A program made the position numbers and the translations under genes. This document shows, piece after piece, positions 5,732-58,979 of a stretch of DNA of 64,000 nt. The notes below the pieces were generated by a model, which did no database searches, was not told the DNA's origin, and worked only from the letters and a program-made list of their open reading frames with translations. Location of the stretch: contig JACEVL010000143.1 of the NCBI GenBank assembly GCA_020284085.1, positions 706,983 to 770,982 on the forward strand, written 5' to 3'. Each line of letters opens with the position of its first letter. Within the stretch, counting starts at the first letter, position 1. The DNA is from Aporrectodea caliginosa. Its lineage: Eukaryota; Annelida; Clitellata; Crassiclitellata; Lumbricidae.

Positions 5732-6233
5732 GGGAAAAGTCGTAGTTTACGTTGCTAAATTATTTGATATTGTCACTTTAACATGGAAGCTGGATTGATG
5801 AAAGAAATTGTTTCCATAAATGGAAGTGGGATTGATGAAAACATTCCTGTGTTCAAAATAAAGTTGTATTGATCGAAATAATTGTTTCCGTAAATAGAAG
5901 CTGGATGGATGAAATTAAGTTTCTGATTCACTAGAAGCTGGATTGATGAAAATAATTGTTTCCGTAATTAGAAGCTGGATTCATGAGAATATATCTTTGC
6001 TTAAATAAAAGTTCCATTGATGAAAAATATTTCTTTCATCAAATAGAAGTTGGATTGATAAAAGTAATTTTTTCTAATTAAATGGAAGTTGGATTGATGA
6101 AAATATTTCTTGACGAAATGGAAGCTGGATTGATGATAGTTAACATGCACATGGGTAGACTGCTTACTTACCAACGTCAAGTACGGCATTGAAGATATTA
6201 TAATAATTTAGCAACGTAAACTACGACTTTACC
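5732..6233. mobile_element. MITE with internal minisatellite (family A, copy 1)
   Basis: Terminal inverted repeats of about 30 bp (AAAGTCGTAGTTTACGTTGC at each end, one side inverted) flank several variable ~35-45 bp copies of 'agaagctggattgatgaaa'. An 8 bp direct repeat TATTTTGG borders both ends, as expected for hAT-type insertion. No coding capacity. A second copy in the opposite orientation lies at 22201-22593. Confidence 0.75.
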
Positions 6234-7721: not shown

Positions 7722-8400
7722 ACCCTTAGAATGGAACAGTCTTCCAACTTCAGTTAGACAGTGCACATCTGTTGCTCAGTTTAAAACAAGGTATGGCCTA
7801 AAAGTGCATTTTAGCGTATTTTATTGATAGTGGAGGTAGGCTTGTATTTTAGCGTATTTAATTATTTCAATGATTTTCATGATAACTGTAACGAATCCAG
7901 CTTTTATTTAAGCAATATTCTTTTCATCAATCCCACTTCTACTCAGACTAAAATTATTTTCATCAATCCGACTTCTATTTAGCAAGAATTCTTTTCGTCA
8001 ATCCAACTTGTATTCGACCAACGCTGACTCCCCATGCAATGGCGACTCATTTGCGACGCTTAACTGTACACTTTTTCATCTGTCCAGCTTCTCTTTTAGC
8101 AAATAACTAGTTCATCAATCCAACTTCCATTTCGGCAATCAATTATTTTATATCAATCCAGCTTCCATTTACGCAGATACATCAGAGAAATAATAAAATA
8201 CGCTAAAATACTCGGCCATAAACATCATGAGTTAAACACGCTAAAAATAATTCACTTTAACTAAAACAAAATTAAAACTCATTTGTTCACCTTACACCAT
8301 GACTAAGGATGTAGCGAAACGCGCTCTCGTGCAAGACCTGTCTTGCTAAAGCGCGCTAGCCTATAGACCTAAATTTTCATTTGTATTGCAAGCCTATGTA
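7722..8400 (+). mobile_element. Non-LTR retrotransposon 3' end, split by a MITE
   Basis: The left part (7722-7789) encodes the end of a WN-LP-SVRQ-type ORF2 C-terminus. The right part (8262-8400) continues it with KTHLF-like codons, the 'gcgctctcgtgcaagac' 3' UTR and a GTATTGTATT tail. The interruption is the MITE at 7790-8261. Compare the uninterrupted relative at 5335-5517. Confidence 0.7.
7790..8261. mobile_element. MITE with internal minisatellite (family D), 8 bp target duplication
   Basis: It is flanked on both sides by TAAAACAA (7782-7789 and 8262-8269), an exact 8 bp duplication as in hAT insertions. Inner inverted repeats contain ATTTTAGCGTATTTTATT. The core holds about five variable copies of 'catcaatccaacttctattt'. 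It interrupts a non-LTR 3' end, so its age relative to that element is fixed. Confidence 0.75.
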
Positions 8401-8494: not shown

Positions 8495-9587
8495 ATGGAA
8501 CAGTTAAACGATATGACGGAATGTTGCATTTGCGGCGATATGTTCACAGATCCAAGAATGCTACCATGTATTCACACATTTTGTCTCAAATGTCTCGAAT
8601 CAACCAGATGGAACTCAGACAAGTGTCCAGGAGACACAATGTCTTGTCCGATCTGCAGGCAACGATTCATCATACCACCAAATGGACTTAGTGGTCTTCC
8701 GAAAAACTTCTTCATGGAGAGATTAATGGAAATAGTGAAGATATCCAAATCACATAAGGCCGCTTTGCCGTGCGACGTTTGTCTAGTAAATAAAGAAGAT
8801 GCTGATATTGAAGTACCTGGTGCTTCAAAATACTGCGCTGAATGCCGAGAAAACATGTGTGAGATTTGTTCTGTACAACACAAGCGCCAGAAGTACAGCA
8901 GAGATCATCAGATTGTACCTTTCGAAGACCAACTTAAGGATGAATTGGTGAAGACATCGGTGGTTACATACTGCAACCAACATAATAAGGAAGAGCTGAA
9001 GATGTACTGCGCTGAGTGTAAGGACGTTGTTTGTATTAAGTGCCTTGCAGAAAGTCACAAATTGCACAAATGTTCCGATGTAAGCAAAGTAGCGGATGCT
9101 TTTAGGGTCGAGATCGGCATCTTCCAAATGAAAGTAGTTGAAGGTTCGGAGGAAGGATTGGCAAGAAAACTCATGATTGAACAGGAGAAAAGGAGGTTCA
9201 CGGAAGACCTGGGAATCGCTGAAACTGCGATAAAAGACAGCGCAAACAAACTGAAAGAACTTATCGACAAGCATGCAACGGTTCTACTGGATGAATTGTT
9301 TCAGGTAAAGGCAACACGAATGAAAGAAACTGAAAATAAAAATGAGAAAATTGAAAGATATCTTGCAGCAGTTAACAGCTTCAATGCGTACTGCCGTGAA
9401 ATAAAATCCAAGGGAACTCCAACCGATATCTGTCGCGCTGTCGATGATTTGCGTGCTAGAGCTAATCAATTGCAGGAAGTGAATGCAACGCAGATTAAGC
9501 AAGATGCTAATGCCGTTCTTGTCTCTTTTAAAACTTCTGCATTCCAAGATATCCTGAAGGTGGAGAACATTGTCGGCAACCTAGAAG
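8495..9587 (+). CDS. TRIM-type protein, exon 1: RING, B-boxes, coiled coil
   Basis: This is exon 1 of a three-exon gene (8495-9587, 10101-10148, 11023-11855). Numbering from the Met at 8495: RING C3HC4 at residues 10-54 (C10, C13, C25, H27, C30, C33, C51, C54), then B-box 1 from about residue 93 (CDVC), B-box 2 from about residue 155 (CNQHNKEELKMYCAEC), then a helical coiled-coil region. The frame is open from an earlier ATG at 8420, but TTTTTTTAATTGCAG at 8449-8463 looks like an acceptor, so 8495 is preferred; the earlier ATG adds 25 residues. TRIM proteins are usually RING E3 ubiquitin ligases, often in innate immunity. That role here is inferred from family. The exon ends with a donor AAG|GTATAT leaving phase 1. 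Confidence 0.9.
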
Positions 9588-10100
9588 GTATATAGGGCCT
9601 ACATTTACAAACAGTCATTATTACTAACATGCATAACTGACTTCTATGTTCTGTTGAAACGTTGTCTACTAGGCTCTAGTGGTATATTGTATGTTCTGAT
9701 CAGTTAATAGTCACTAACTGACGCATTTTGACTATGAACTCTTTCTGAGTGACCGCTACTTTCAAATATACGTAGGCCCTGTATTTTACTTCTGCCAGAA
9801 TTTTATTTTGAAGACTTAAAACAAAATACTTCAATTGCCTATTCAAAATCAATGTTGATTTAGCATATCAGAAATGCATAGCTAGGCTATGCTACTTAAT
9901 GGGATTGGACCCGTATTGCTCTACAGTATATGGGAATTTGGATCTTATAATGCTTCCAAGTGGACATGCTTGCATGGTTATGACAAGATTAAATCAAAGC
10001 TACCAATTTTGCATTGATCGTATTAAAAGCGTCGTGGAATGCAATGTTGGCTTTGGTTCAACTTAATCGATTTAAACCAGTTTTGCTACTTTATTTGTAG

Positions 10101-10148
10101 TGCAACATAAGACGATCGCCACGCCAAAGACGAATGAAGAACAACCAG
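10101..10148 (+). CDS. TRIM-type protein, exon 2 (48 bp linker)
   Basis: The mini-exon lies between TTTATTTGTAG and a GTGTGA donor. With one base carried from exon 1 it reads VQHKTIATPKTNEEQP and leaves one base for exon 3, so both junctions are phase 1 and symmetrical. It is a short, charged linker between the coiled coil and the propeller. The same exon with AG/GT borders is conserved at 17986-18033. Confidence 0.8.
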
Positions 10149-11022
10149 GTGTGAAAGCTTCAATTACTTTTAAGTCATTGTTTTTTCACCGATCTATATA
10201 GACCAAATTCTGATGACTTATAAGGTCCAATTGTAAACTTTTCAAAGTATATTATATATATATAGTATATATATATATAAGTATATATATATATATATAT
10301 ATATACTCTAGAACACAGTTTGAGAACCGTCTTTTGCGAAGAAGTTATGGATATCCATTTGGTTTGAATACGGCATGGCAGTATGCTGTAGCAAGGCCTC
10401 TAGCGATACAATCTAATCTACTCTAAGTACGTTACCCACGTCGAAGCTGAAGTTATGTTGCATAATTCATTTAATGAATACACTAACCTAAAGATTAGCT
10501 GCTTCGTGACGCTAACTGTAGTCATTGTCTGTGAGCCTCAGTTCTGAAAATGACGACCAATCTAAATGAACAGATATAATGTAAACTGTAACTGTGCAAA
10601 GAACTCGAGGTTTCCCGATTTCTTCTCTAAAGAATAGGTTATCATCGTAGGTAGTTTTCAGATAGTAGTGTTGGCATACATTCACGTGTGTAGCCTACGA
10701 AGTACCGAATAACACACCTGCATAATATAGGCTGCATAACATGCAATTATTTTGAGTTTCTATTTATTTTCAAACTATCTTGTGTACTTAGGAAAAAAAT
10801 AATGCTGTGTATCCGGTAACCCGACCGAGTCACTTTTTTAGGCCCGACTGGGAAAATTTTGTGATTTTGTTTATTGACACATGAATATAAGTTTTGCGTG
10901 CCAGTGGAGCAGATTTGCGACATTGATATTAGCCTGTAGACCTGAGTTTATTCTGCGGAGACATTTAGATTTTAGATGATTTATGTAAGCTACGATAGCA
11001 GTTCTTTTGCTGATTGTTTCAG
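10149..11022 (+). other. Intron 2 of the TRIM gene, with an AT microsatellite
   Basis: It runs from GTGTGA to GATTGTTTCAG. An (AT)n-rich microsatellite occupies about 10248-10306. The rest matches the corresponding intron at 18034-18909, which has extra insertions. Confidence 0.7.
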
Positions 11023-11855
11023 TTTCCATTGACTTCATGCAAAGACTCCAGTGTTCGATAGATGTGCATGCAGTTACTAAACTGGACGACAAAATCTACG
11101 TACTTTGCAGGAAAATGTTCCGATTTGATAGTGGTACTGTGATAACTATCTTTGAGGACCGAAACCCGTTTCAGGCTTACAAGAACATCACGAGAGGAGA
11201 GATTTCGGGTTGCCAGCATATTGTATCAAGTGAGAAGTTAAACTGTCTATACGTATCTGACTTGCGGAATAGATGCATCTGGAAGCTAACTGCTGAGGAC
11301 TGCCGAGCGACTCAATGGTTGCCCATACTAAACGGACTATTCACTCTGTCAGTGTCCAATGATGGACATCCTTTGCTTTTGAGAGATGTTGAAGGGGTGA
11401 GTCAATTGGAAATCTTCGGATCTAATGCAAAGATCATTCGAAGTATTGCATTACCCCGCGATATAGTAAGTCCACTCCACACCATACAGGACACCAATGG
11501 ACAGTTCATCATAATTCACAAATCGGATGAATCAGGTGGATCTTGGGTAATCAGTAAATTGAACAGCGAAGGGCAAATACTTCGCCAGTTTCAGTACAGA
11601 GAAAAGAATCAAGAGCTCATGAATCCATGTCATTTGTCTTTGGATTCAGAGAACAATCGACTGTTTGTGGCTCAAAAGGATAAGTTGAAATTCAGTGTGG
11701 TTATATTTGACCTAGGTTATCTAGAATTGAAACAAATTCTTCTATCATCTGAGGAAATCCTTCCTAGTTGGCGACTTTCACTGCATTACGATGAACGCAA
11801 GAAACAATTACTTGTGGGAAAATTACAGGAAGTCGCTGTTTATCAAATTTATTAG
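11023..11855 (+). CDS. TRIM-type protein, exon 3: C-terminal beta-propeller
   Basis: The last exon starts after GATTGTTTCAG and ends in TAG at 11853-11855. It codes for about 277 residues with repeated short blades, for example DDKIYVLC, NCLYVSDLRNRCIWKL, NNRLFVAQKD and KQLLVGKLQEVAVYQIY. These resemble NHL/six-blade propellers at the C-terminus of invertebrate TRIM proteins, which bind targets (protein or RNA). The complete protein would be 657 residues from the Met at 8495 and has no frameshift. A duplicated copy sits at 18910-19745. Assignment to the NHL family rather than another propeller class is by pattern only. Confidence 0.85.
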
Positions 11856-12089
11856 GACGAGTTTGGCACAGTTTTTTTTACAGATGTTGTAACTTGTAGC
11901 AATATTAAATCAAACTTTAACACTTTAACGACTAAGGTTATTGGTTTCCCTGTCGCGTACAGCATCCGTTCGTCGTCAATGTATTAAGTATAATTAGTTG
12001 TTATAATGATAGTTTAAGCGTTACTTTAAAAGTCTAACGCATTCTTAGAACAATGGATAAGTAAAAAAATACAATGACTCCATAATAAG

Positions 12090-12515
12090 AAAAACTACTA
12101 ATCCGGTTTAACATGCATTGCTATTATCCCATTCATTCTCACTGGCATACCCCCACCAGGCCTGGGAGGCATACATAAGGTGTTCCACAGTGTTTACCAT
12201 AGCCGCCTCAATGCCTCATGCAGCGCGAAAGGGCAAGTGCCCTGATCTCTCAAAACCCGGAGTGCGTACAGAGAGGAGGAACTTCAGGCAAGGACCTTTT
12301 CTATAATTATGCTTTCTCATGCGCAGGTCGGAGCTGAGGGTTATCCCCAACACTCTAATGGTGTCAACCCTTTCAACCCCTTGGATTACGACGGGTATGG
12401 ATGAACCTTTGTGGCCCCTTCTGCTGAGAAGTGTAATGCATCATAATGTTAGCAAAAATTCGGTGACGGGCGTAACCCAATCAGTAACTGTTGGGGTAGC
12501 CACAAGTTAGGATCA
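12090..12515 (-). pseudogene. Non-LTR reverse transcriptase C-terminal relic
   Basis: The minus strand reads IPVVIQGVERVDTIRVLGIT in one frame and YASQAWWGYASENE further on. Both are hallmarks of the region after the RT catalytic core (LGVTLSSD; Y-SPAWWGF). The equivalent part of the intact element at 53725-56833 reads YAAPAWWGF. The frame is broken by stops. A second copy at 19995-20405 came with the segmental duplication. Confidence 0.6.
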
Positions 12516-12536
12516 AGGCGTCGCAGCACTAAAAAG

Positions 12537-13003
12537 AGGTAATTTCGCATTTAGCGTTCTAAATTATTCTCCCACTGTAGCATTATTATTTTTTCATCAA
12601 TCCAACTTCCACTTAGGCAAGAATCCTTTCATCAATTCAGCTTCTATTTAGGCAGCAATTCTTTTAATCTATTCAGCTTACATTTAAGCAACAATTGTGT
12701 TTGTCTAATCCTTTTTATATATAAGTAACAATTATTTTTCATCAATCTCACTTCTAGGCCCTATTTAGCAAGAATCTTTCCATCAATACGAGTTAATTCT
12801 ATTTGAACAACAATTATCATCAATTCGACTTCTATTTAGCGAGAATTCTTTTCGTCAATCCAACTTCGTAATCTCCAAACTTCTACAGCGCCACTCGAAA
12901 GCCAAGCGCAGGGCACCAGCTTATTTACGAGCGCTGCATTCTACCGACGCTAAAACCAATATAATGGGGAATAATTTAGAACGCTAAATTGCGAAATAAA
13001 CCT
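12537..13003. mobile_element. MITE with internal minisatellite (family C, copy 1)
   Basis: Terminal inverted repeats of about 35 bp (AATTTCGCATTTAGCGTTCT on the left; the right end is its near complement) surround about seven variable copies of 'catcaatccaacttctattt'. A ~70 bp SINE-like fragment with 'gccaagcgcagggcacc' (about 12870-12940) is inserted near the right end and is absent from copy 2. Confidence 0.75.
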
Positions 13004-15250: not shown

Positions 15251-15267
15251 AAACTTTGATAGCCTGA

Positions 15268-15806
15268 TGGTTAATTGAGGAAAACAATTTGGAAAACAAT
15301 TTGGAGTTAATTAGAAAATTTTAAATAAAGTGGTTAATATTTTTTTATATTAGAATCTGGGAATAAATTTAGAATTATTGATAATAAGGCCGAATCACAA
15401 TATGAATTCATTAATTTTTTTAACGCCCTTCAGGGGTACCAATCAGAGGTTCAAATTGTGCAGAGCGTCGACGAGTTATTCCGTTTATAGGTGAAGAACT
15501 TACGAATTTCTAGTCGCAAGAGGACACTGGCGAAGAACGTATAATCCAACTCTAGTGGCACTATATTCTTTTTCATGTTAGCCATTTTGAGTTAAGGACA
15601 AAGGAGCAGTTTACTTTACAAATACCCTTACTCTGCCGGTATTTGTCTTATATTTATTAAATCTTCTCGCATAATTTATGTTTTGAATTTCTTCCAGTGT
15701 ATCGTATGACAAATGCTGTTCCATCTGCCTGTACAGTTTAACTCACATTTGTATAGAAATTGTTGAGCGGATATGTTATCAGAACGAAAGCATTTAGTAA
15801 AGCCCA
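15268..15806 (+). repeat. Duplicated segment S, copy 1
   Basis: About 540 bp starting GTTAATTGAGGAAAACAATT is repeated, with few changes, at 21468-22040. In both places it lies downstream of a TRIM 3' half, so it is most simply part of the same segmental duplication. Confidence 0.75.
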
Positions 15807-15937
15807 TAGAGATGTATAATATATAAATATATCACTAGAGGCCCAGATCTGCTGTTATTTTTGAGGCCGCCGATTTCGCCATTTTGTATACTGCAAGGGT
15901 CAAGGCCTTTTGAGCCTTGACCGTTGCGGTATAAAAA

Positions 15938-16029
15938 ATGGCGACACGATCGACGGTAACTTGTGTAGCTCTTGGATGTAAGAATTTATTAACGCCAGAA
16001 AACAAGGCCGATGGAATATCATTTCATCG
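15938..16029 (+). CDS. THAP domain gene, exon 1 (start of THAP-propeller fusion)
   Basis: It starts at ATG 15938 and runs to a strong donor CG|GTAAGT. It encodes MATRSTVTCVALGCKN and onward, with the first zinc ligands of a THAP (C2CH) finger, C9 and C14, and ends in ISFH with a split Arg codon. THAP domains bind DNA and occur in transcription factors and P-element-derived transposases. This exon joins in phase to 17076-17224. Confidence 0.8.
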
Positions 16030-16374
16030 GTAAGTTGTTATTTTGTGTCTGTTGTACTTTTTGCAATGCATAAACTTCGTAAAAACATTAAAACAGTCTT
16101 GTTTAAGAGCAAGCTTATAAAATCGGGGGCTGAAGGATATAACGAGTAAGTTTACGGGTTACGGCCTGAATCCCCGAAACGAATTTCGACCGGATCCCCA
16201 AAATTGATTTTCTAAGTCCGACCCGAATGAATATAGGCCCTAATTAACAAATAAACATGTGAATATCAGAATATACATGACGGCCAAGCTAGGTCGGTAA
16301 TGTTTACAATTTAATAATAATTCTCTTTATTGAAACAATCTCGGTTGACAGACCGCAACCGGTGACATAAATCT

Positions 16375-16925
16375 TAACTACTAACAGAAAAGACAGCCTG
16401 CAAACACAAAGCACGTCCGCCTGCGGTAGGGCTGCCAACTTTTGATTTTGCCATTCCGGGACGCCCGCAGTCGGTCGATGTGCCATTACCAGTTCACCCT
16501 GTCCACATTGGTGCTCAGACAACTGCGATTGTCAGACTACATGCTAAGCACTCTCCCGCAAACTGACAGTCTGCAGAACACAATGCTAAGCAACTGAATG
16601 TCAGTGTTTTGTAAATTTTTGAAGACTCGACGCTGTTGAGCCAGCGACGTCAGGTCTGATAGAGCTTAGAACGCAAATTTAATCGCACAACTTGTCCAGT
16701 TTAATGTGCGAAAACAAGAACAACATTAATTTTGGTGAACTGGATGTCTACACCAAATTCCGGGACAATTTGGGATCAATCCGGAACACGGGACGCACAA
16801 GGCCGATTCCGGGACTGTCCCGGCGAATCCGGGACGGTTGGCAGCCCTAGCCTGCGGGTATCGGACTCGGTACTTCTCGCTCTCTATGCCAGTGTGTTAT
16901 CCAATGCGCAATCGGGCCCCAATTT
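16375..16925 (-). mobile_element. tRNA-derived SINE interrupted by a hAT MITE
   Basis: Left and right parts (16375-16426 and 16850-16925) together match the SINE at 15120-15250, including 'ctctcgctctctatgcc'-like sequence. The MITE at 16427-16849 sits between them. Confidence 0.65.
16427..16849. mobile_element. hAT-type MITE, 8 bp target duplication
   Basis: Terminal inverted repeats TAGGGCTGCCAAC / GTTGGCAGCCCTA and sub-terminal CCGGGAC motifs. GCCTGCGG is duplicated exactly on both flanks (16419-16426 and 16850-16857). Non-coding, 423 bp, inserted in a tRNA SINE within the THAP intron. Confidence 0.85.
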
Positions 16926-17075
16926 AACTCTGAATAGGTTTCGGGAGTTTGGCCGCCTTCTAGAAAACTAAACAACCGAACAGTGATATACATGAAATCT
17001 TATTTAAATGAACAAAGCCATAGTTTTTTGGCAGATCATGGTGTAAGCGAATAACATTTTCACAATCTGTTATAG

Positions 17076-17224
17076 GTTTCCAAAAGATCCTGAACTGCGA
17101 AAGAACTGGGCAGTCCATTTACACCGTGACAACTGGGCACCGACAGACTACTCGCGTATCTGTTCAACTCACTTCGAAGATGTTTGCTTGTACAACAGTG
17201 GCATGCGCAAGAAACTGTTACCAG
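17076..17224 (+). CDS. THAP domain gene, exon 2
   Basis: It is bordered by CTGTTATAG and a weak donor CAG|GTTTGC. It completes the THAP finger: FPKDPELRKNW, then YSRICSTHFED with ligands C60 and H63 of the predicted protein, and RKKLLP at the end. C9/C14, C60 and H63 fit the C-x4-C-x45-C-x2-H spacing; the conserved FP, W42 and F64 are present. The usual AVPTIF box would lie in a following exon that is not found here. It ends in phase 1 with a G, the same as TRIM exon 1, so splicing to the TRIM mini-exon at 17986 keeps the frame. Confidence 0.8.
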
Positions 17225-17254
17225 GTTTGCGGAACTGACTTGAAATATAGTTCG

Positions 17255-17322
17255 TGTTTCTTTTAAAACTTCTGCATTCCAAGATATCCTGAAGGTGGAG
17301 AACATTGTCGGCAACCTAGAAG
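17255..17322 (+). pseudogene. Remnant of TRIM exon 1 (3' tail)
   Basis: 68 bp nearly identical to the end of the TRIM exon at 9520-9587, including its donor position (AAG|GTACAT). It has no acceptor or RING/B-box part. It marks the left breakpoint of the segmental duplication, 31 bp after THAP exon 2, and should be spliced out of the fusion transcript. Confidence 0.85.
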
Positions 17323-17429
17323 GTACATAAATTTACAAACAATCAGTATTACTAACATGCATAACCGACTAATTTGTTTTGTTGAAACGTTGTCTACTAG
17401 TGATAGGCCTATATTGTATGTTCTGATCC

Positions 17430-17588
17430 CTCTGATCCTCTGGAAACCAGACTCTGACCTCCCTCGGACTACTCTTTTGGACAACCCTTCTGACTAGACG
17501 CAGCGCTCGTGAATATGCTGGTGCCCTGCGCTTGGCTTTCCAGTGGCGCTTTAGAAGTTTGGAGATTACGTTTACGATTACGATTATG
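17430..17588 (+). mobile_element. SINE/retroposon insertion in TRIM-copy intron
   Basis: Absent at the matching site of copy 1 (about 9690). It is flanked by TATGTTCTGATC on both sides (12 bp target duplication) and ends in a GATTAC-type tail. Its body 'gccctgcgcttggctttcc' is inverted at 12870-12940. It postdates the duplication. Confidence 0.7.
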
Positions 17589-17985
17589 TTCTGATCAGTT
17601 ATTGTCACTAACTGACGCATTTTGACTTAGACCGCTACTTTCAAGTACATGTAGACCCTATATTTTACTTCTTCCAGATTTTTATTTTGAAGAGTTAAAA
17701 CAAAATACTTCAATTGACTATTTAAAATCAATGTTGATTTAGCATATCAGAAATGCACAGCTAGGCTATGCTGCTTAATGGGATTGGACCCGTATTGCTT
17801 ATTATGGGAATTTATATCTAATATTGCGTCCATGTGGACATGCTTGCCGGTTATGACAAAGGTTAAATCAAAACTACCAATTTTATATTGATCGTATTAA
17901 AAACGTCGTGTATTGCCAGCGTTGCTTCTGTTGGCTTTGGTTCAATATAATCGATTTTAAATCAGTTTTCCTACTTTATTTGTAG

Positions 17986-18033
17986 TGCAACATAAGACGC
18001 TCGCCACGCCAAAGACGAATGAAGAACAACCAG
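17986..18033 (+). CDS. Fusion gene exon 3 (TRIM mini-exon copy)
   Basis: A 48 bp copy of TRIM exon 2 with intact AG/GT borders (TTTATTTGTAG and GTATGA). It reads VQHKTLATPKTNEEQP in the phase set by THAP exon 2. The one residue change (I to L) from the parent leaves the frame intact. Confidence 0.75.
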
Positions 18034-18384
18034 GTATGAAAGCTTCGATCACTTTTCAGTCATTGTTTTTTCACCGATCTATATAGACCAAATTCTGATG
18101 ACTTATAAGGTCTAATTGTAAACGTTTCAAAGTATATAATTATATGAAGTTAAGTTGCGTAATTAATTTAATGAATACACTAACCTAACGATTAGCTGAT
18201 TCGTGACGCTTAGCCTACTGTAGTCATTGTCTGTTAGACTCAGTTCTGAAAATGACGACCAATCTCACGGAACAGATAATGTAAACTATAACAGTTACTG
18301 TGCAAAGAACTCTAGAGTTCCCGATTTCTTCTCTAAAGAATAGGTTATCATCGTAGGTAGTTTTCAGATGGTACTGTTTTCCAT

Positions 18385-18572
18385 AGTATATATACAGGGG
18401 GGGTTGGGGGTTAAACCCCCCCCCCATTGGCTTAGGGGAAAAAATTTTTGCACCCAGCACGATGAAGTTTTAACAATATTCGCAATTTTCGGTTGAAAAC
18501 ACAAATTACCGGTATTTTAAATCCCAAAACCCCCCCATCATAAATTCCTGGCTACGCCACTGTATATATATA
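18385..18572. mobile_element. Insertion with CAGTGGCGTAGCCAGG end
   Basis: Present only in the duplicated intron. It is bounded by TATATA and has an inward C/G-run hairpin. The right end read on the minus strand is CAGTGGCGTAGCCAGGAATT, a terminus common in animal DNA transposons; the left end is diverged. Confidence 0.5.
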
Positions 18573-18694
18573 TTCACGTGTTTACGAATAAAACACCTGT
18601 AGACCTATAATAATTATAGGCTGTATCAGTTATGCAATTATTTCGTGTTTTCCAGTTATTTTCATGCTATCTTGTGTACTTGCCTGAGTTTCTT

Positions 18695-18845
18695 CTGCTA
18701 GGCCTAGAGCGGAGTCATTTATCTACTCTCAATCTTTCTATACTTGCCTCAAAACTGTCCTTTTTCAGCCATGCTGTGGTCGGGAGCGCTCCTGAGTAGT
18801 AACCTTGAAGGGGGGCTATATAAAACTTCGTAATGAATGAATGGA
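18695..18845 (+). mobile_element. Non-LTR/SINE 3' tail
   Basis: It codes for LKTVLF-like residues near 18750 and ends in GGCTATATAAAA plus an AATG-type tail. It is absent from the matching intron of copy 1. Confidence 0.5.
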
Positions 18846-18909
18846 TTAATTTAGATTTCAGATGATTTAAGTAAACAACGATAGCAGGTTCTGTTATTGA
18901 TTATTTCAG

Positions 18910-19745
18910 TTTCCGTTGACTTCATGCAGAGACTCCAATGTTCGATTGATGTACATGCAGTGACGAAACTGGACGACAAAATCTACGTACTCTGCAGGAA
19001 AATGTTCCGATTGGATAGTGGTACTGTGATAACTGTCTTTGAGGACCGAAACCCGTTTCAGGCTTACAAGAACATCACGAGAGGAGAGATTTCGGGTTGC
19101 CAACATATTGTATCAAGTGAAAAGTTAAAATGTCTATACGTATCTGACTTGCGGAAGAGATGCATCTGGAAGCTAACGGCTGACGACTGTCGAGCGACTC
19201 AATGGTTGCCCATGGTAAGCGGAATATTCACTCTGTCAATGTCGAAAGATGGAAATCTTTTACTACTGAGAGATGACAAGGGGGTGAGCCATTTGGAAAT
19301 CTACGGATCTGATGCCAAGATCATTCGAAGTATTGCATTGCCCCGCGATATAATGAATCCACTCCACATCATACACGACTCCAATGGACAGTTCATCATA
19401 ATTCACAAATCTGAGGAATCATGGGGTGGATCTTGGGTAATCAGTAAATTGAACAGCGAAGGGCAAATACTTCGCCAGTTTCAGTACAGAGAAAAGAATC
19501 AAGAGCTCATGAATCCATGTCAGTTGTCTTTGGATTCAGAGAACAATCGACTGTTTGTGGCTCACAAGGATAAGATGAAATTCAGTGTGGTTATGTTTGA
19601 CCTAGGTTATCTAGAATTGAAACAAATTCTTTTCATATCTGAGGAGCTCCTTCCTAGTTGGCGACTTTCACTGCATTACGATGAACGCAAGAAACAATTA
19701 CTTGTGGGAAAATTACAGGAAGTCGCTGTTTATCAAATTTATTAG
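18910..19745 (+). CDS. Fusion gene exon 4: TRIM-type beta-propeller copy
   Basis: It starts after TTATTTCAG and ends in TAG at 19743-19745. It encodes a propeller about 90% identical by eye to 11023-11855, with no stop or frameshift and one in-frame extra codon (HKSEESWGGSW versus HKSDESGGSW). Joined to THAP exons 15938-16029 and 17076-17224 and the mini-exon, it predicts 374 residues: THAP (1-80), linker (81-97), propeller (98-374). The RING, B-boxes and coiled coil are lost. An alternative is an untranscribed partial duplicate, but the open frame argues for constraint or recent origin. Confidence 0.75.
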
Positions 19746-19994
19746 GACGAGTTTGGTACAGTTTACTCCGTGTGTAGCAATATTAAATCGGACCTTAACA
19801 CTTTAACGACTAAGGTCATTGGTTTCCCTGTCACGTACAGCATCCGTTCGTCATCAAAGTATTAAGTAGAATTATTTGTTATAATGATAGTTTAGGCTAA
19901 GTGTTACTTTAAAAGACTAACGCATTCTTTAGAACCATGGATAAGTACAAAAAATACACTGACTCCATAATAAAAAAAAAAACATACTAATCCG

Positions 19995-20405
19995 GTTTAA
20001 CATGCATTGCTATTTATCCTTTCAATCTCACTGGCATACCCCAACCAGACCTGGGAGGCACAGGCCTACATAACGTGCCCCACAGTGGTTATCATAGCCG
20101 CCTCAATGCCTCATGCAGCGCGAAAGCGGACGTGCCATGATATCTCAAAACCCGGAGTGCGTATAGAGAGGAGGAACTTGAGGCAAGGACCTTTTCTATA
20201 TGCTTTCTCATGTGCAGGTCGGAGCTGAGGGTTATCCCCAACAGTCACTCTAATGGTGTCGACCCTCTCAGCCCCTTGGATAACGACGGGTATGGATGAA
20301 CCTTTGTGGCCCTTCTGGTGAGAAGTGTAATGCATCATAATGGTAGCAAAAATGCGGTGAAGGGATTAACCCAATCAGTAGGCCTAACTGTTGGGGGTCG
20401 CGACA
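19995..20405 (-). pseudogene. Non-LTR RT C-terminal relic, duplicated copy
   Basis: A copy of 12090-12515, in the same position relative to the TRIM 3' end, with similar broken RT codons (GSSIPVVIQGAERVDTIRV on the minus strand). It came with the segmental duplication. Confidence 0.6.
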
Positions 20406-20437
20406 AATTAGTATCAAGGTGTCGCTGCACTAAAAAG

Positions 20438-20785
20438 GGGTAATTTCGCATTTTAGCGTTCTAAATTGTTCCCTCACTGTAGCATTATTATTTATTCACC
20501 AACCCAACTTCCACTTAGGCAAGAATTCTTCCATCAATTCAGCTTCTATTTAGGCAGCAATTCTTTTAGTCTATTCAGCTTACATTTAAGCAACAATTGT
20601 GTTTATCTAATGCTTTTTATATTTTATAAGTAAAAATTATTTTTCATCAATCTCACTTCTAGGCCCTATTTAGCAAGAATCTTTCCATCAATACGAGTTC
20701 TATTTGAACAACAATTATCATCAATTCGACTTCTATTTAGCAAGAATTCTTTTCGTCAATCCAACTTGTATTCTACCGACGCTTA
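20438..20785. mobile_element. MITE with internal minisatellite (family C, copy 2, right end missing)
   Basis: The left inverted repeat matches 12537 (GTAATTTCGCATTTTAGCG), followed by about seven 'catcaattcgacttctattt' type repeats. The right inverted repeat is absent after 'ctaccgacgct'; this is where similarity to copy 1 ends. Confidence 0.65.
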
Positions 20786-21467
20786 ACATAATTATTCAAA
20801 TATTCTATTTGTTAAATAGCCTAGTTAATTAAAATTGATAATGATTCAGCAAATTTAAAAGTTAAACCACTCTAATGCGTTGCAGGAGAATTTCATTTTA
20901 TGAAGTGCTGTGAAGTTCAGTGACCACATTGGAGGATACACCCATTAAAGCCAGAGGAAGATAGCTGCACAAAATATAAATCACAAGATAAACAGAAAAA
21001 CAAAATGTAAATTGAAGCATAATCCACACAGAAATTGTGAGCTAGCATGTGACTGCCAAGTAGTTCAGGCCTACCTAAGTGGTGTGGTGTACACTGCGAT
21101 CGCTAGAGTACCGCGCAAAACAATGTTTTACATTAACCGTGTATTTGGTCAAATGTGAGATTTTTACTTGCATTATGGAAAGGTTTAACCCTCATGCGAC
21201 CAACATATTTAACTCCTTAATAAGATCAACTGGGTCCCTTGGTACCTCAATAGTCATGGCGCGTTCAGTGCTTTCTGCTCTTGCTGAAATGTCACTTTAT
21301 CTTGCTACTAGTCGAAGTGGCAACAGTTCATCGTTTACCTGTGTATTGTATTGTATCTATAAATTTACATAGCTCCTCTCGCAGTGTACACCAATCAGAG
21401 GAGCTGTGTATTGCTGTGTATTGTATTTTTCCAATGTTTCCTATCTGTTACCTGTAACAAGTTGAGG
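20786..21467. other. Non-coding stretch with a small hairpin
   Basis: No supported gene. AGCTCCTCT near 21370 and its complement AGAGGAGCT near 21397 form a hairpin next to GTATTGTATT tails of the non-LTR type. Confidence 0.4.
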
Positions 21468-22040
21468 GTTAATTGAGGAAAACAATTTGGAAAACAATTT
21501 GGAGTTAATTAGAACATTTTAAATAAAGTGGTTAATATTATTTTGTTATATTAGAATCTGGGAATAAATTTAGAATTATTGATAATAAGGCCGAATCACA
21601 ATATGAATTCATTAATTCCTTCATAGATTTTTTTAACACCCTTCAGGGGTACCAATCAGAGGTGCAAATATTATTGTGCAGAGCGTCGACGAATTATTCC
21701 GTTTATATGTGAACAACTTACGAATTTCTAGTCGCAAGAGGACACTAGCGAAGGACGTATTAATCCAACTTTAGTTGCATTATATTCTTTTACATGTTAG
21801 CCATTTTGAGTTAAGGACAAAGGAGCAAAGTTTACTTTACAAATTAATACCCTTACTCAGTTACTCTGCCGGTATTTGTCTTATCTTTATTAAATCTTCT
21901 CGCATAATTTGTGTTTTGAACTTCTTCTAGTGTATCGCATGACAATTGCTTTTCCGTATGCCTGTACAGTTTAACTCACATTTGTATAGAAATTGTTGAG
22001 CGGATATGTTATCAGAACGAAAGCATTTAATAAAGCCTGT
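21468..22040 (+). repeat. Duplicated segment S, copy 2
   Basis: Second copy of 15268-15806, ending in 'gcatttaataaagcc'. No THAP exons follow it, unlike copy 1. Confidence 0.75.
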
Positions 22041-22200: not shown

Positions 22201-22593
22201 GGTAAAGTCGTAGTTTACGTTGCTAAATAATATTATTCTAATGTCTTCAATGCCGTACTTGACGTTGGTAAGTAAGAAGTCTACCTATGTGCATGTTAAC
22301 TATCATCAATACACCTTCCATTTCATGAAGACATTTTTTCATCAATCCAACTTCTATTTAATTTGAAAAAATTACTTTTATCAATCCAACTTCTATTTCA
22401 TGAAAGAAATATTTTTCATCAATGGAACTTTTATTTAAGCAAAGATATATACTCATGGATCCAGCTTCTAGTTACGAAAACAATTATTTTCATCAATCCA
22501 GTTTCTATTGAATTCAAAACTTAATTTCATCAATCCAGCTTCCATTTACAGTGACAACATCAAATAATTTAGCAACGTAAACTACGACTTTAC
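22201..22593. mobile_element. MITE with internal minisatellite (family A, copy 2)
   Basis: Terminal inverted repeats GGTAAAGTCGTAGTTTACGT and its complement, with repeated 'catcaatccaacttctattt' inside. Same family as 5732-6233 but opposite orientation. No clear target duplication. Confidence 0.75.
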
Positions 22594-23187: not shown

Positions 23188-24498
23188 ATGAGTGAAAATA
23201 GAAATTTTTGTGAGTCAGGACTAACAGAGTCTTGCAACACAGAAAATAAAATGGAGAATGTTACCGTAAACAATATTGGAAATGTATACCAGTGTGAGTT
23301 CTGCGAAAAGGCGTTTGCAAAAACTTGTGATCTAATACACCATATTAGAATCCACACAGTAGATAAACCATACAAATGTCTCCTATGCAGCAAAACATTT
23401 AGTTTTGGGAGTTATTTGAATGTTCATATGAGAACCCACACTGGAGAGAAACCATACAAGTGTGAACTATGTGCCAAAGCGTTTATAAGCAAAGACAAAG
23501 TAGAAAAACACACAAGAACTCACACTGGAGAAAAACCATACCAGTGTATGATATGTGCGAAAGCATTTACAAGAAATGATAAGCTAGAACTTCACACAAG
23601 AACCCACACTGGAGAAAAACCACACATGTGTGAACTATGCTCGAAATCATTTATAAGTAAAGCCAAACTAGACCAACACACAAGAACCCACACTGGAGAA
23701 AAACCATACCAGTGTATGATATGTGCAAAAGCATTTTCAAGAAATGATAAACTAAAACTTCACACAAGAACCCATACTACAGATAAACCGCACAAGTGTG
23801 AACTATGTGCAAAAGCATTTGCAAGAAATGATGAACTAAAGCTACATGCAAGAACACACACTGGAGAAAAACCATACAAGTGTGAACTATGTGCAAAAGC
23901 ATTTACAGCAACTGGTCAACTAAAATGCCATTTGAAAACCCACACTGCAGATAAGTCACACAAATGCAAGTTATGTGACAGAGCATTTCGAACTGAATAT
24001 CTTCTAAAGAATCATAAGCGATTGCATACAGGAGAAAAGCTATACGAATGCCAATCTTGTCACAAAGCATTTGAACAGCCTCAACATTTGAATAAACATG
24101 TGAGAATTCACACTGAAGAGAAACTACACAAGTGTGAAGTATGCAACAAAGGTTTTGCATTGAAGCGTTATCTGCAAGAACATTCAAAAATCCATGATAG
24201 AGAAAAGCCATACAAATGTTCACTATGCGAGAAAGGATTTTGTAGGGCTGGTCGTCTCAGAAATCACATTAGAACCCACAGAGGAGAAAAGCAAAATCTG
24301 GAAGTTATTGGAAATAAGAGATCATCTGCTGTTCATATTCGGCCCTTCCTGGTGAAACCACATGGATGTGGATTTTGTGATGCAATGTTTGAAATTGAAG
24401 AAGAGTTTGTGGATCACTGTTTTGCGGTGTGTTATTCTCCAGTGGCTGAAGACTTTGCTGAGGTGTTTCAAGATCATCAACTGTATTCACTTGTTTGA
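23188..24498 (+). CDS. C2H2 zinc-finger protein, 12 fingers
   Basis: An uninterrupted 436-residue frame from ATG 23188 to TGA at 24498, with a short acidic N-terminus. Twelve classical C-x2-C-x12-H-x3-H fingers occupy about residues 30-365, most joined by TGEKPY-type linkers, which indicates sequence-specific DNA binding in the nucleus. A thirteenth atypical C-x2-C finger near residue 395 ends in HCFAVC. Fingers 4 and 6, and 3, 5 and 7, are very similar, so the array grew by internal duplication. No KRAB, BTB or SET domain is seen in this exon; an N-terminal exon upstream is possible. A decayed partial copy follows at 25075-25431. The DNA target cannot be deduced. Confidence 0.85.
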   Translation: MSENRNFCESGLTESCNTENKMENVTVNNIGNVYQCEFCEKAFAKTCDLIHHIRIHTVDKPYKCLLCSKTFSFGSYLNVHMRTHTGEKPYKCELCAKAFISKDKVEKHTRTHTGEKPYQCMICAKAFTRNDKLELHTRTHTGEKPHMCELCSKSFISKAKLDQHTRTHTGEKPYQCMICAKAFSRNDKLKLHTRTHTTDKPHKCELCAKAFARNDELKLHARTHTGEKPYKCELCAKAFTATGQLKCHLKTHTADKSHKCKLCDRAFRTEYLLKNHKRLHTGEKLYECQSCHKAFEQPQHLNKHVRIHTEEKLHKCEVCNKGFALKRYLQEHSKIHDREKPYKCSLCEKGFCRAGRLRNHIRTHRGEKQNLEVIGNKRSSAVHIRPFLVKPHGCGFCDAMFEIEEEFVDHCFAVCYSPVAEDFAEVFQDHQLYSLV

Positions 24499-25074: not shown

Positions 25075-25431
25075 AGATGACGTTCAAGCTCTTGTCTATG
25101 AGAAATGCAAAACGTTCAACAGAATAATTTGAAAAATCATGGACAGAAACCATACAAGTGTGACAAATATCACAAGGCATTTGCAGAGAAGAGTCACCGG
25201 AATAGGCATTCAAAAAGACACGTGAATAAAATTCATACAAAGTCAGATTATGCGAGAAATGGTTGGAGCATAGGGCCTACAAGTATATAGTATACATGTA
25301 CTCCTGATTCTGTGAAACCATTTGAGTGTGTAGTATGCAATGAACTGTTTCAAATAGAACAGGAATTTACGAAGCACTGTTTCCAGGCGTGTTATTCTCC
25401 ATTGAACGATGACTTTGCAGAACTGTTTTGA
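25075..25431 (+). pseudogene. Decayed partial copy of the C2H2 gene 3' end
   Basis: Codons for a finger read YKCDKYHKAF, where the second zinc Cys is replaced by Tyr, then HSKRH. After stops, the tail FECVVCNELFQIEQEF and HCFQACYSPLNDDFAELF parallels the C-terminus of the intact gene (HCFAVCYSPVAEDFAEVF). The order is kept, but the middle fingers are lost. Confidence 0.8.
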
Positions 25432-52222: not shown

Positions 52223-53772
52223 TTATAATCTAGATAAACAATCTGCTACAACATTTAATCGTCCTTTCTTATAATTAACCTCTACATCAAAAGTTTGCAG
52301 TGCCAAAGCCCAACGCACCAGTTTAGCAGACTTTGACATAGATTCAGTCAGATAAGTTAAAGGATTGTGATCGGTAAAGATGTGAACTTTAGATCCAATT
52401 ATTATCTCTTTTAACTTATTTAGAGCCCAAACAATAGCATAGGCTTCTTTCTCCACAGTTGCCCATCTCCTCTGGGTGTCAGTCAACTTCTGACTTATAA
52501 ATGACACAGGGCGCTCTATTCCCTTATCATCCATCTGCGTTAGCACAGCTCCTACTGCAAAATCACTGCTATCACAGTACAAATTAAAAGGTTTTCCAAC
52601 ATCAAAAACATATAAAACAACTTTAGAGCGTACAGCATCTTTAAGTAAGTTAAATGCTTGTTGATGTCTATCAGTCCAATCAATCTTATCTGAAACATGT
52701 TTGCTTGTCAAATCAGATATAGGCTTCGCAATCTGTGCAAAATCTTTGATAAACTGTCGATAGTAACCAAAAAATCCCAGCAATTGCTTAACTTGTTTCT
52801 TCGTTTCTGGGGTTTTCAAATTAATTAAACTTTCAATTCTATCTGGATTCATTTGAATCGTTCCAGAACCAACTACATGACCGATGAACTTTACCTTACT
52901 CTTACCAAAGATACATTTCTTTAAGTTCAGAGTAATGTTATGCAGTCTCATTTGCATTAAATATGCATCTAAATGCTGTAAATGAATCTTCCAATCATCT
53001 GAATGCACAGCAATGTCATCTACATAAGGCTCAGCAAATTCATTTATAGGCTGTAAAACCATGTTAATTGCTTTAACAAATGTTCTTCCTGAGTTGATCA
53101 TCCCGAAAGGAACACGAGTAAACTCGTACAGTCCATTGTGAGTAACAAAAGCAGTTTTCCATTGATCAGTTTGCTTAACAGGACAAGTCCAGTAAGCACT
53201 TCGACAATCAAAAATCGAGATCACATTTGATTTTCCAACTTTGTGTAACACGTCTTTTACAATCGGCATCGGATATTTACAATCCACAGTGAACGAGTTA
53301 ATGTATCTGTAGTCGCAGGCAAGTCTCAGAGAACCGTCTTTCTTTTTAACAATAACCAACGGACTTGCCATTCTGCTCGAAGATGGTTTTATAATGTTGG
53401 CTTGAAGCATTTCTTTAATTTGTCGTTCAACTTCTGCTCGATAGATGAGTGGAATTCGGTAAGCCATAAATTCTTTTCACGAAATTCCGGTTTCAGTTCA
53501 ATTTCATGTTCAACCAATGTACATAATCCAGGCTTTTCAGAAAATCGATCGGAATATTTGTTCAGTACTTCCAGCAATTGTTTTTGTTGAGTCAATGTTA
53601 AATGGCTAATCTGTTCAGGATCAAGATTCAGTGAATTCTTTTCATTTTGCCAGTCATTCTTCGTCAACAGTTCAACCACTGAACCAAAGTCTTCATCTTC
53701 TTCAACGATTAGTCCACAACTCATGACGTCTACGGGTAACCCCAGTTTTGAACGATATAGATACACACGCAA
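52223..53772 (-). pseudogene. Gmr1-like RT and RNase H, frameshifted
   Basis: 53772-53389 starts in the duplicated target (MSCGLIVEED) and runs to the RT N-terminus (HEIELKPEF). After a one-base frame change near 53467, the frame 53467-52223 carries MAYRIPLIYRAEVERQIKEM, DCRSAYWTCPV, FTRVPFGMINS, YVDDIAVHSDDW (catalytic YVDD) and GFFGYYRQFI. RNase H follows with LYCDSSDFAVGAVL, ATVEKEAYAIVWAL and FTDHNPLTYL. It is the last domain, with no integrase after it. Confidence 0.85.
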
Positions 53773-56761: not shown

Positions 56762-56833
56762 ATTTTTTTTATATTTGATGATCTTTGTACACCAAAATGC
56801 GGTTAGCAGTTGGTTTTTTCAATAAAGGATATA
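53725..56833 (+). mobile_element. Non-LTR retrotransposon inserted in the Gmr1-like element
   Basis: Flanked by an exact 31 bp target duplication (53694-53724 and 56834-56864). About 3.1 kb, with one long ORF, a 3' UTR of about 70 bp with AATAAA near 56821, and no poly(A). It lies opposite to the host element and interrupts it between integrase and RT. Confidence 0.85.
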
Positions 56834-58979
56834 CATCTTCTTCAACGATTAGTCCACAACTCATTGCTCTTGTAATGTACTTTCTGATTTTATTTGCGTG
56901 AATTATCTTCCGACAATCGTCACCCATGTCAATCAAATAAGAGTACTTTGACCTTCGTTGTATGACAGTACATGGACCATGCCATCGTGACATCAGTTTA
57001 TTTGTTGAAGTCGGATATAACACAATGACTTTTTCACCCGGTTCAAATTCTTTATGTTTCGCTCTTTTGTTGTATTGATTCGTATACTGTAATTGCTTCT
57101 CTCGTGAATATGATTCTGCAAACAATAATGCTTTTTCCATATTTGCTTTCATGTCTTTCAAGTATTTTTCTGGTTGGATTCCAATATGAGGTGGTAAATT
57201 AATTTCTCTTGTCCAACTTTCTTTTAGAATTGCCAATGGTCCACGCGGAATCTTTCCATACACCAACATATAAGGAGCAATTCCAGTAGTTGCATTCGGT
57301 ACTTCTCGTAATGCCCACACTGTAAACGGAATTACTTTGTGCCATTGCCTTGGATTGTCAACAATTACATGATGGATCATTTTCTTGAATGTTTGATTCC
57401 ATCTTTCTACTAATCCAGCTGCTTCTGGATGACCTGGCGTGTCAAATCTTGGACTACACCCCATTAAATTCAGAAATTCTCTTGTCAGACTCGCAGTAAA
57501 ATTTGTTCCTTGGTCACTTGTGATCACAGAAGGTACACCAACGTTCATGAACAACTCCATCAAAGCATCACATACAGCTTTTGCAGTTAATGATTTCAAC
57601 AGAAACACTGTAGGCCATCTGGTGCAAGAATCGACAATACATAAACAGTACTTGTGACCTGCAGCAGATGCTGGCTCGATTGGTCCTACACAATCCACCG
57701 TAATTCTTCTGAAACTTACATCTTCTCTTGGAATTGGAGTGATAGGAACCCTGTCCATCACCAAACTTCTTGCCTTTAATTGACATTTCTCACATGATTT
57801 GCAAAATTTCACTATATCTCTTCTCATCTTTGGCCACGTAAAAGACAACTTTATTCGTTCTCTAGTTTTCTCTTCTCCAAGATGTCCTCCAAATACTGAT
57901 TCGTGAGCCAACTCCATCACTTTCATTCGTCGCTCTTTTGGTAACACCAATTGATATATCGTTTGCTCTAATATTCGATATCTCTTGTACAGTAAGCCAT
58001 TTACCACGCAGAATTCAGATTCTTTATCTTGCGCTAAATTCCACCATGCTTTCAATGATTCATCTTGTCTCTGCTGTTCTTCAAATTTCTTTGCGTCTGC
58101 AATCTGCATCTGTTGTTCTTCATCTTTCTCATCTTCTTGAAACAAATCTGCTATCGCCACATCACATTCATTATCCTCTTTCGTTTCATTTAGATTACCA
58201 TTCTTGCATGCAGCCATCTCTTGTTCACTCATCTCTGCTGTTATACCGTCTTGCATTAAACTTTGTTGATCATCGCTTTCGTTTTCCTCTTCGCTTGAAC
58301 TTTCAGTTTCACTTTCCTCTTCGACATCTACCACTTTCTTTCGCTGACTCTGCAATCTCGTCGTTACATTTGCTTGCACATCTCCTTGTATCATTTTCAC
58401 TTGTGGCACGGCTTTTAGTTCTGCAATGATTTCTGGATGCAACAAGAATCTTTCTGTGCTTCCCATTTTTGCAATACTAGCACACATCAATGTTACATAC
58501 GGTGTCAGTGAACATTTGATTTTATGCGGAATTACCTCTTCTTCCACATCGTTACAACACAGCCTTACATCAACTTTCACTAACTTTGCAGGAATGGCAT
58601 CTCCTGCCACGCATTGTAAATTCACTTTTCCAATCTGCTCCACCTTCATGCCTTCCAGTAATTCTTCACTAATCACCGGAACCTCTGCTCCAGAATCAAT
58701 AAGTGCTTTTACTTTTATTGGTTCTTTTCCTGCTGTTCCACGAATCTCTACCTCGACGTACTGCAATACCACTTTCTTCAATGCTGTACTTTCATCTCTT
58801 CCAACCATTTCTTTCTGCATTCCATTGTGCAATAGAATTTCTTTCTGAATATCAGGTGAAAGATGACATTTCATCACTGACTTTACTTCAGTTTCATTAT
58901 TCTGATGTTCTGTGGCTTGACTTTCAGAATTATCAACCACTTGAATTCGATTCACCCTCGAATTTTCTTGTTTTTCCAT
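56769..58979 (-). CDS. Gmr1-like protease and integrase
   Basis: A 736-codon frame whose start overlaps the gag frame by 47 bases in another phase, so a gag-pol frameshift is likely. Aspartic protease near residue 90 (VKALIDSGAEVPVIS), an acidic linker, then integrase: zinc-binding HHCC (HESVFGGHLG, then CKSCEKCQ), DDE core (ITVDCVGPI, VITSDQGTNF, HPEAAGLVERWNQ) and a C-terminal GEKVIVLYP/SRWHGPCTVI region. It then reads MSCGLIVEED and is cut by the non-LTR insertion; the last ~20 codons belong to that element. Continuation into RT is at 53772. Confidence 0.85.
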   Translation of the reverse strand: MEKQENSRVNRIQVVDNSESQATEHQNNETEVKSVMKCHLSPDIQKEILLHNGMQKEMVGRDESTALKKVVLQYVEVEIRGTAGKEPIKVKALIDSGAEVPVISEELLEGMKVEQIGKVNLQCVAGDAIPAKLVKVDVRLCCNDVEEEVIPHKIKCSLTPYVTLMCASIAKMGSTERFLLHPEIIAELKAVPQVKMIQGDVQANVTTRLQSQRKKVVDVEEESETESSSEEENESDDQQSLMQDGITAEMSEQEMAACKNGNLNETKEDNECDVAIADLFQEDEKDEEQQMQIADAKKFEEQQRQDESLKAWWNLAQDKESEFCVVNGLLYKRYRILEQTIYQLVLPKERRMKVMELAHESVFGGHLGEEKTRERIKLSFTWPKMRRDIVKFCKSCEKCQLKARSLVMDRVPITPIPREDVSFRRITVDCVGPIEPASAAGHKYCLCIVDSCTRWPTVFLLKSLTAKAVCDALMELFMNVGVPSVITSDQGTNFTASLTREFLNLMGCSPRFDTPGHPEAAGLVERWNQTFKKMIHHVIVDNPRQWHKVIPFTVWALREVPNATTGIAPYMLVYGKIPRGPLAILKESWTREINLPPHIGIQPEKYLKDMKANMEKALLFAESYSREKQLQYTNQYNKRAKHKEFEPGEKVIVLYPTSTNKLMSRWHGPCTVIQRRSKYSYLIDMGDDCRKIIHANKIRKYITRAMSCGLIVEEDVYPLLKKPTANRILVYKDHQI

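What the first reader, a model, noticed from the sequence alone, without database searches (positions are those of the whole stretch)
15938..19745. Predicted THAP-beta-propeller fusion gene created by a segmental duplication
A THAP finger is encoded by two exons (15938-16029, 17076-17224). 31 bp later the 3' half of the neighbouring TRIM gene begins as a duplicate. THAP exon 2 ends in phase 1, and the duplicated mini-exon (17986) accepts phase 1. The mini-exon and propeller exon keep their AG/GT borders, and no frame has a stop, so a 374-residue THAP-linker-propeller protein follows with no sequence change needed. The RING/B-box exon is reduced to 68 bp inside the intron. THAP binds DNA and TRIM-type propellers bind protein or RNA, so the product would be a new architecture. 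I know of no such combination, but I could not search.
Basis: partly seen in the sequence, partly recalled or inferred. Interest (0 to 1): 0.88.

Follow-up and report, generated by a model that had tools for sequence, protein, structure and literature searches.

The report
Predicted THAP–propeller chimeric gene
A duplicated copy of the propeller-coding half of a TRIM gene lies just behind two likely exons for a THAP zinc finger, in the same orientation and reading frame, so the two are predicted to be spliced into one new fusion protein, whose DNA-binding half would lack its usual closing motif.

Summary
Two likely THAP exons (15938-16029, 17076-17224; Pfam THAP E 8.6e-16) are followed, 25 bases on, by a diverged duplicate (17250-20774) of the 3' part of the neighbouring TRIM gene (9515-12874). 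THAP exon 2, the duplicated 48-bp mini-exon and the propeller exon join in phase 1 without a stop, giving 374 residues. The duplicated propeller exon encodes a complete propeller (AlphaFold pLDDT 89.5, 24 strands; best PDB match TRIM2 NHL). Its frame is intact where simulated neutral decay keeps it so in about 0.1-0.3% of runs, though substitution counts are less decisive. So the copy is probably used.

The parent TRIM exon also joins the same copy in frame, giving a rival. A phase match is a one-in-three event. THAP exon 2 reads to a stop at 17236-17238 if its weak donor is skipped.

One search of 5.8 billion proteins found no THAP-propeller protein. No RNA data were available, and the genome search did not complete. 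I rate a chimeric transcript near even odds and a working DNA-binding fusion unlikely.

The parts
8495..9587 (+). Parent TRIM gene, RING/B-box exon (an upstream in-frame ATG at 8420 is also open)
   Evidence: ORF; Pfam RING 1.3e-8 and B-box 1e-8; in-frame joining
10101..10148 (+). Parent TRIM mini-exon, 48 bp, phase 1-1
   Evidence: AG/GT borders and in-frame joining
11023..11855 (+). Parent TRIM propeller exon with stop
   Evidence: ORF; homologs
15876..15944 (.). 31-nt inverted repeat (7-nt loop) whose right arm holds the THAP start codon
15938..16029 (+). THAP exon 1 (predicted), start codon at 15938
   Evidence: Pfam THAP; intron at the place and phase of human THAP1 intron 1
17076..17224 (+). 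THAP exon 2 (predicted); ends in phase 1 before the place of the AVPTIF box; donor CAG|GTTTGC
17225..17238 (+). Read-through tail of THAP exon 2 ending in TGA (84-aa THAP-only product if not spliced)
17250..17322 (+). Start of the duplicate: relic of the 3' end of the RING/B-box exon with its donor
17250..20774 (+). Duplicate of 9515-12874
17986..18033 (+). Duplicated mini-exon (phase 1-1), 1 difference in 48 from the parent
18910..19745 (+). Duplicated propeller exon with stop; predicted complete six-bladed propeller
19782..19787 (+). ATTAAA polyadenylation-like signal (AATAAA at 19969 too)
21463..22037 (+). Match of 15265-15804, the stretch upstream of THAP exon 1; the THAP exons themselves are not repeated in the window

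Best explanation
A partial duplicate of a TRIM gene, lacking its RING/B-box exon but for a short tail, lies directly behind two likely THAP exons in matching orientation and phase, and is predicted to be transcribed from the THAP promoter and spliced to them as a chimeric gene. Shown: the duplication and its divergence, the open 374-codon joined frame, and an intact propeller exon; a structure model predicts that it folds into a complete NHL-type propeller. Inferred: that the donor at 17224 is used and joined to 17986. Inferred too: because the RING is gone and the AVPTIF box is replaced by linker, the product would act mainly through its propeller, as a RING-less competitor that shares the parent TRIM's ligand but cannot mark it with ubiquitin, rather than as a normal THAP DNA-binding factor. 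I put 0.45 on the chimeric transcript being the main product of the copy; the competitor role, given that transcript, is a further guess.
For: THAP match and intron at the THAP1 place. Frame intact with or without the mini-exon. Of the 15 GT in 17076-17330, three score above -3 (17224, 17294, 17322); only 17224 leads to the fusion, and it scores above the parent TRIM exon-1 donor (1.03 against 0.59; matrix recalled). The copy's propeller exon has one indel, of 3 nt, in 833 aligned bases against 15 gap openings in 997 bases of 3' flank (Fisher p 0.0015), and simulated neutral decay leaves it free of stops and frameshifts in 0.11-0.29% of runs. Complete propeller model, best Foldseek match in the PDB TRIM2 NHL, E 4e-10. 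Precedent: in Drosophila yakuba 24 of 76 chimeras made by tandem duplication showed raised expression against 5 of 66 whole-gene duplicates (PMC5460883 section 7).
Against: No transcript evidence. The donor is weak: T at +3, 94.3rd percentile of all GT in the window, and a GT at 17294 scores higher (1.58). The same open copy serves a TRIM-only splice form. Pair dN/dS is 0.37-0.46 by three methods, not clearly below the 0.5 or more expected if only the parent is constrained. Of 32 residue differences outgroups assign 12 to the copy and 7 to the parent and leave 13 open, with 1 indel besides. A neutral copy would show a mean of 23-42 changes; up to 25 on the copy has P 0.70, 0.16, 0.05 and 0.002 at the four rates tried. 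Differences are uneven, with few in the last third of the exon, so gene conversion may have kept the frame. The RING-exon relic, useless in the fusion, is as conserved (2 differences in 73) as the mini-exon (1 in 48). The AVPTIF box is absent.
Confidence: 0.45

Rival explanations
1. The duplicated mini-exon and propeller are an alternative 3' end of the parent TRIM gene: exon 1 (donor 9587) would skip the first cassette and join 17986, with the THAP exons lying inside the long intron.
For: TRIM exon 1 + 17986-18033 + 18910-19745 is open for 658 aa. It explains upkeep of the copy without any new promoter, and donor and acceptor are the ancestral pair.
Against: Needs read-through past the parent's own ATTAAA at 11904 and skipping of its cassette. 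The THAP exons and their own start lie in between and nearer.
Confidence: 0.2
2. A decaying leftover: a truncated THAP gene that at most yields an 84-residue THAP-only peptide, and a propeller copy kept open by youth or gene conversion rather than selection.
For: Stop right after the weak donor. AVPTIF missing and no exon for it found by pattern. dN/dS near 0.4-0.5; uneven divergence along the exon.
Against: No stop and no frameshift in the copy despite 10-13% intron divergence; the C2CH residues of the THAP are present.
Confidence: 0.22
3. THAP exon 2 normally joins a distant third exon that carries AVPTIF; the TRIM duplicate sits inside that intron and is skipped.
For: Exon 2 breaks just before the AVPTIF position, as a natural intron there would; THAP proteins depend on the box (passages).
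Against: No match in six frames of the window to [AST][VIL]P[TSA][ILVMF][FY], and no AVP-like start among phase-1 acceptors with at least 25 open codons in 17,240-40,000 (only acceptors with C or T before AG and a pyrimidine-rich tract were kept). The exon could have a divergent box or lie outside the window.
Confidence: 0.1
4. Assembly error or mis-joined haplotypes put the duplicate next to THAP.
For: Could not be checked: no reads, and the genome search did not answer in 13 tries.
Against: The long stretches differ by 7-13% and carry different insertions, more than usual allelic difference (recalled).
Confidence: 0.03

Closest known systems
TRIM-NHL proteins (TRIM2, TRIM3, TRIM71, Brat, Thin)
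   Same: The parent has RING, B-boxes and a C-terminal NHL-type propeller; the copy's model has TRIM2 NHL as best Foldseek match in the PDB, and the family profile hits TRIM2, TRIM3, TRIM71, Brat and Thin.
   Different: The propeller is too diverged for Pfam NHL on its own; the predicted fusion has no RING or B-box.
THAP proteins (THAP1, THAP2; THAP transposases such as Kolobok)
   Same: C2CH signature, FP, W and HF residues, first intron at the THAP1 place.
   Different: Lacks the AVPTIF box; C-terminal half is a propeller.
THAP4 (THAP joined to a nitrobindin beta-barrel; recalled)
   Same: Precedent for THAP joined to an all-beta domain (recalled).
   Different: Barrel, not propeller, and the THAP is complete (recalled, not tested).
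Chimeric genes from tandem duplication (Drosophila yakuba, PMC5460883)
   Same: A duplication that ignores gene borders unites the 5' end of one gene with the 3' end of another; one case of duplication followed by deletion is described (section 7).
   Different: Those had RNA evidence and were found as variants among lines; here the join is predicted only and the copies differ by 7-13% in their long stretches.

Membership tests
THAP domain | C2CH zinc ligands with conserved P, W and F | tested here: met
   C9, C14, P33, W42, C60, H63, F64 in the translation, aligned to THAP2 and THAP1; Pfam E 2e-14 in the fusion
THAP domain | C-terminal AVPTIF box | tested here: not met
   Fusion matches profile positions 1-78 of 87, and linker VQHKTLATP follows; the fish relative P0006 matches to 86, its box reading AIPNV
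THAP domain | Zinc-dependent sequence-specific DNA binding | not testable with these tools
   No assay
TRIM-NHL | RING and B-box before the propeller (parent) | tested here: met
TRIM-NHL | RING and B-box in the predicted fusion | tested here: not met
   Only a 73-bp tail of that exon remains, in the predicted intron; Pfam finds THAP alone in the fusion
TRIM-NHL | NHL-type six-bladed propeller | tested here: met
   24 strands, pLDDT 89.5; TRIM2 NHL best match, TM 0.71; profile hits TRIM2, TRIM3 and TRIM71. Pfam NHL itself is not reached by either window propeller
Chimeric gene by duplication | Exons of two genes compatible in orientation and phase, open frame | tested here: met
Chimeric gene by duplication | Chimeric transcript | not testable with these tools
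   No RNA data

The most novel reading that the evidence does not exclude
A young, selected gene encodes the first THAP-NHL propeller protein: a RING-less nuclear adaptor made by exon shuffling that carries the propeller of a TRIM ligase to chromatin and blocks or redirects the parent ligase.
Probability: 0.15. Interest if true: 0.65.

Novelty: new member of a known kind. Interest (0 to 1): 0.42.

Why it matters
If the junction is real, this is a new domain architecture made by a duplication that ignores gene borders, with parent and offspring side by side. It would also let one ask what an NHL propeller does once cut loose from its ligase, and whether a THAP finger without its closing box can still work. 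If the junction is not used, it is a useful warning against calling fusions from phase alone.

Tried and rejected
Rejected: a second THAP copy in the window (tblastn gave the two exons and three chance-level hits at E 4.9-9.4); the C2H2 array at 23188-24498 as the lost 3' half of the THAP gene (read by eye: it has its own ATG, its frame at the nearest acceptor does not fit phase 1, and no row falls there); a stop or frameshift inside the copy (none). A propeller-only product from ATG 18924 was considered. It would not need the mini-exon, whose borders are kept, but that conservation is not significant (P 0.25 if one branch is neutral), so it is not excluded.

Led nowhere: searching THAP residues 1-81 for relatives of 206-654 aa (14 candidates, none at E 0.001 or better); scans of viral contigs with the propeller alignment and with the RING exon (126 and 9 pattern matches, no relative). 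The species was not identified. No genome-wide paralog or synteny check was possible.

Limits of the neutral test: the indel rate uses 23 gap openings in 1784 aligned bases (four intron pieces and the 3' flank). Left out of that count were the RING-exon tail (73 bases, no gap), the mini-exon (48, no gap), the propeller (833, 1 gap) and the block 15265-15804 (540, 6 gaps). The share of indels that shift frame (0.75) and the transition shares (0.55, 0.50) are assumed, and the parent stands in for the ancestor. The donor matrix is recalled vertebrate frequencies. Outgroups for polarity and folding were 8 of the 54 proteins found (P0001-P0005, P0007, P0030, P0031), chosen because they cover the propeller.
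Full report
What is there. On the + strand a TRIM gene (exon 1 8495-9587, mini-exon 10101-10148, propeller exon 11023-11855; 657 aa) is followed by two likely THAP exons (15938-16029, 17076-17224) and then by a second copy of the TRIM gene's 3' part. The matching blocks are 9515-12874 with 17250-20774, and 15265-15804 with 21463-22037. The second block lies upstream of the THAP start and its match lies downstream of the duplicated TRIM part, but the THAP exons between are single-copy in the window. So either a unit reaching past THAP exon 2 was tandemly duplicated and then lost its THAP end, or a TRIM piece was inserted behind THAP exon 2. The window alone cannot decide. The second block's lower divergence (5.0% against 10-13% in introns) also leaves room for a separate repeat.

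The THAP half. Pfam THAP is matched at E 8.6e-16, and solved THAP2 and THAP1 chains at 3.4e-13 and 1.8e-11. The border between exons 1 and 2 falls in the R codon of FHRFP at phase 2. Human THAP1 intron 1 follows c.71, in the K codon of FHKFP (residue numbers; c.71+9 from the abstract and passages of PMC4049367). That supports real exons. Exon 2 stops just before the place of the AVPTIF box. In the fusion the profile match ends at 78 of 87, while a fish THAP relative matches to 86. Papers describe the box as needed for folding and stability: THAP11 with F80L is present at a lower level (passages of PMC6944463), and THAP1 with F81L is less stable (passage of PMC7334247). Kolobok transposases keep it or close variants in 27 of 38 and 23 of 24 cases in two frogs (passages of PMC6004289). 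By pattern I found no exon that could supply it, over the whole window for box-like peptides and over 17,240-40,000 for phase-1 acceptors. The statement that the product would bind DNA is therefore the weakest link.

The propeller half. The duplicated exon is 88% identical in protein to the parent and 32-42% to the eight other proteins aligned. AlphaFold gives pLDDT 89.5, pTM 0.89 and 24 strands over the 277 residues, so the single exon is predicted to hold a whole domain of six four-stranded blades. Foldseek's best solved match is the TRIM2 NHL domain (E 4e-10, TM 0.71, 16% identity), with Thin and Brat NHL among the top 50, next to many other propellers. A profile of the family reaches 54 PDB sequences at E 0.1 or better; the best are designed Pizza propellers, and TRIM71, TRIM2, TRIM3, Thin and Brat follow. 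A single-sequence search found nothing better than E 0.78, and Pfam NHL is not reached.

Is the copy maintained? It has no stop, and its one indel is 3 nt. With per-branch neutral divergence of 3.7-5.8%, 11-23% of simulated copies stay free of stops, and 0.11-0.29% stay free of stops and frameshifts. Gap openings are 1 in 833 exon bases against 15 in 997 flank bases (p 0.0015); both branches contribute to that contrast. Substitutions say less. dN/dS is 0.37 (NG86), 0.45 (YN00) and 0.46 (ML). Outgroup polarity gives 12 changes on the copy, 7 on the parent, 13 unresolved and 1 indel. A neutral copy would show means of 23, 31, 34 and 42 residue changes at the four rates tried. If only the 12 assigned changes are the copy's, neutrality is unlikely at every rate (P 0.007 or less); if all 25 are, P is 0.70, 0.16, 0.05 and 0.002. 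Differences are few in the last third of the exon (1, 9 and 0 per 100 bases from 11563 on), so gene conversion is possible. I read this as probable but not proven upkeep.

How the copy could be used. Four joinings of copy-2 exons are open: THAP-mini-propeller (374 aa), THAP-propeller (358 aa), TRIM exon 1 with the copy-2 cassette (658 aa) and TRIM exon 1-mini 1-propeller 2 (658 aa). The THAP exon 2 donor CAG|GTTTGC scores 1.03 with a recalled matrix, against 0.59 for the parent's exon-1 donor and 0.67 for its relic at 17322. The relic and a GT at 17294 (1.58) compete, but lead to a stop after LLPGLRN. By distance and promoter logic the THAP exons are the nearest 5' partner known here, and chimeras of this kind are often expressed: 24 of 76 in D. 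yakuba showed raised expression against 5 of 66 whole-gene duplicates (section 7 of PMC5460883). I put the THAP chimera at 0.45.

Likely role. With no RING or B-box the product could not act as the parent ligase is expected to. With the propeller whole it would probably bind what the parent binds. The simplest mechanism is a RING-less competitor, perhaps shifted to another compartment by what remains of the THAP finger. Every step of this paragraph is inference.

Novelty. One search of about 5.8 billion proteins with the fusion gave 6 hits among 1015 candidates: five align to the propeller and one to THAP, none to both. That search needs shared 5-letter words and keeps only proteins of 0.55-1.75 times the query's length, and many of its animal-like entries look like single exons, so it would miss some fusions. 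Paper searches for THAP domain with NHL (6 papers), THAP domain with propeller (4) and THAP with fusion, domain architecture, lineage-specific and TRIM (7, of which 6 listed) showed none on such a protein (titles and abstract starts only). The mode of origin is well known; the pairing may be new.

Noticed in passing
15876-15944: A 31-nt inverted repeat, 90% complementary with a 7-nt loop, spans the THAP start; both arms carry ATGGCGA reading outward, which could mean a palindromic or two-way promoter.
   Followed up: partly
16427-16849: THAP intron 1 holds a MITE-like insert with ends TAGGGCTGCCAAC/GTTGGCAGCCCTA and GCCTGCGG on both sides, as in hAT-type elements (recalled).
   Followed up: partly
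17429-17584: The copy's first intron has an insert, absent from the parent intron, that contains the inverse of 12867-12937 (94% over 71 nt).
   Followed up: no
23188-24498: Single-exon C2H2 zinc-finger gene with 12 Pfam-matched fingers on an 84-bp period; a related, apparently decayed stretch follows at about 25140-25350.
   Followed up: partly
22303-22548: 37-bp tandem repeat TCATCAATCCAACTTC..., with relatives at 6072-6136 (inverse), 7869-8132, 12629-12866 and 20531-20767.
   Followed up: no
52226-59012: A retroelement on the - strand (RT/RNaseH 52226-53476, integrase 56772-59012) appears split by a + strand element with endonuclease and RT (53591-56758).
   Followed up: partly
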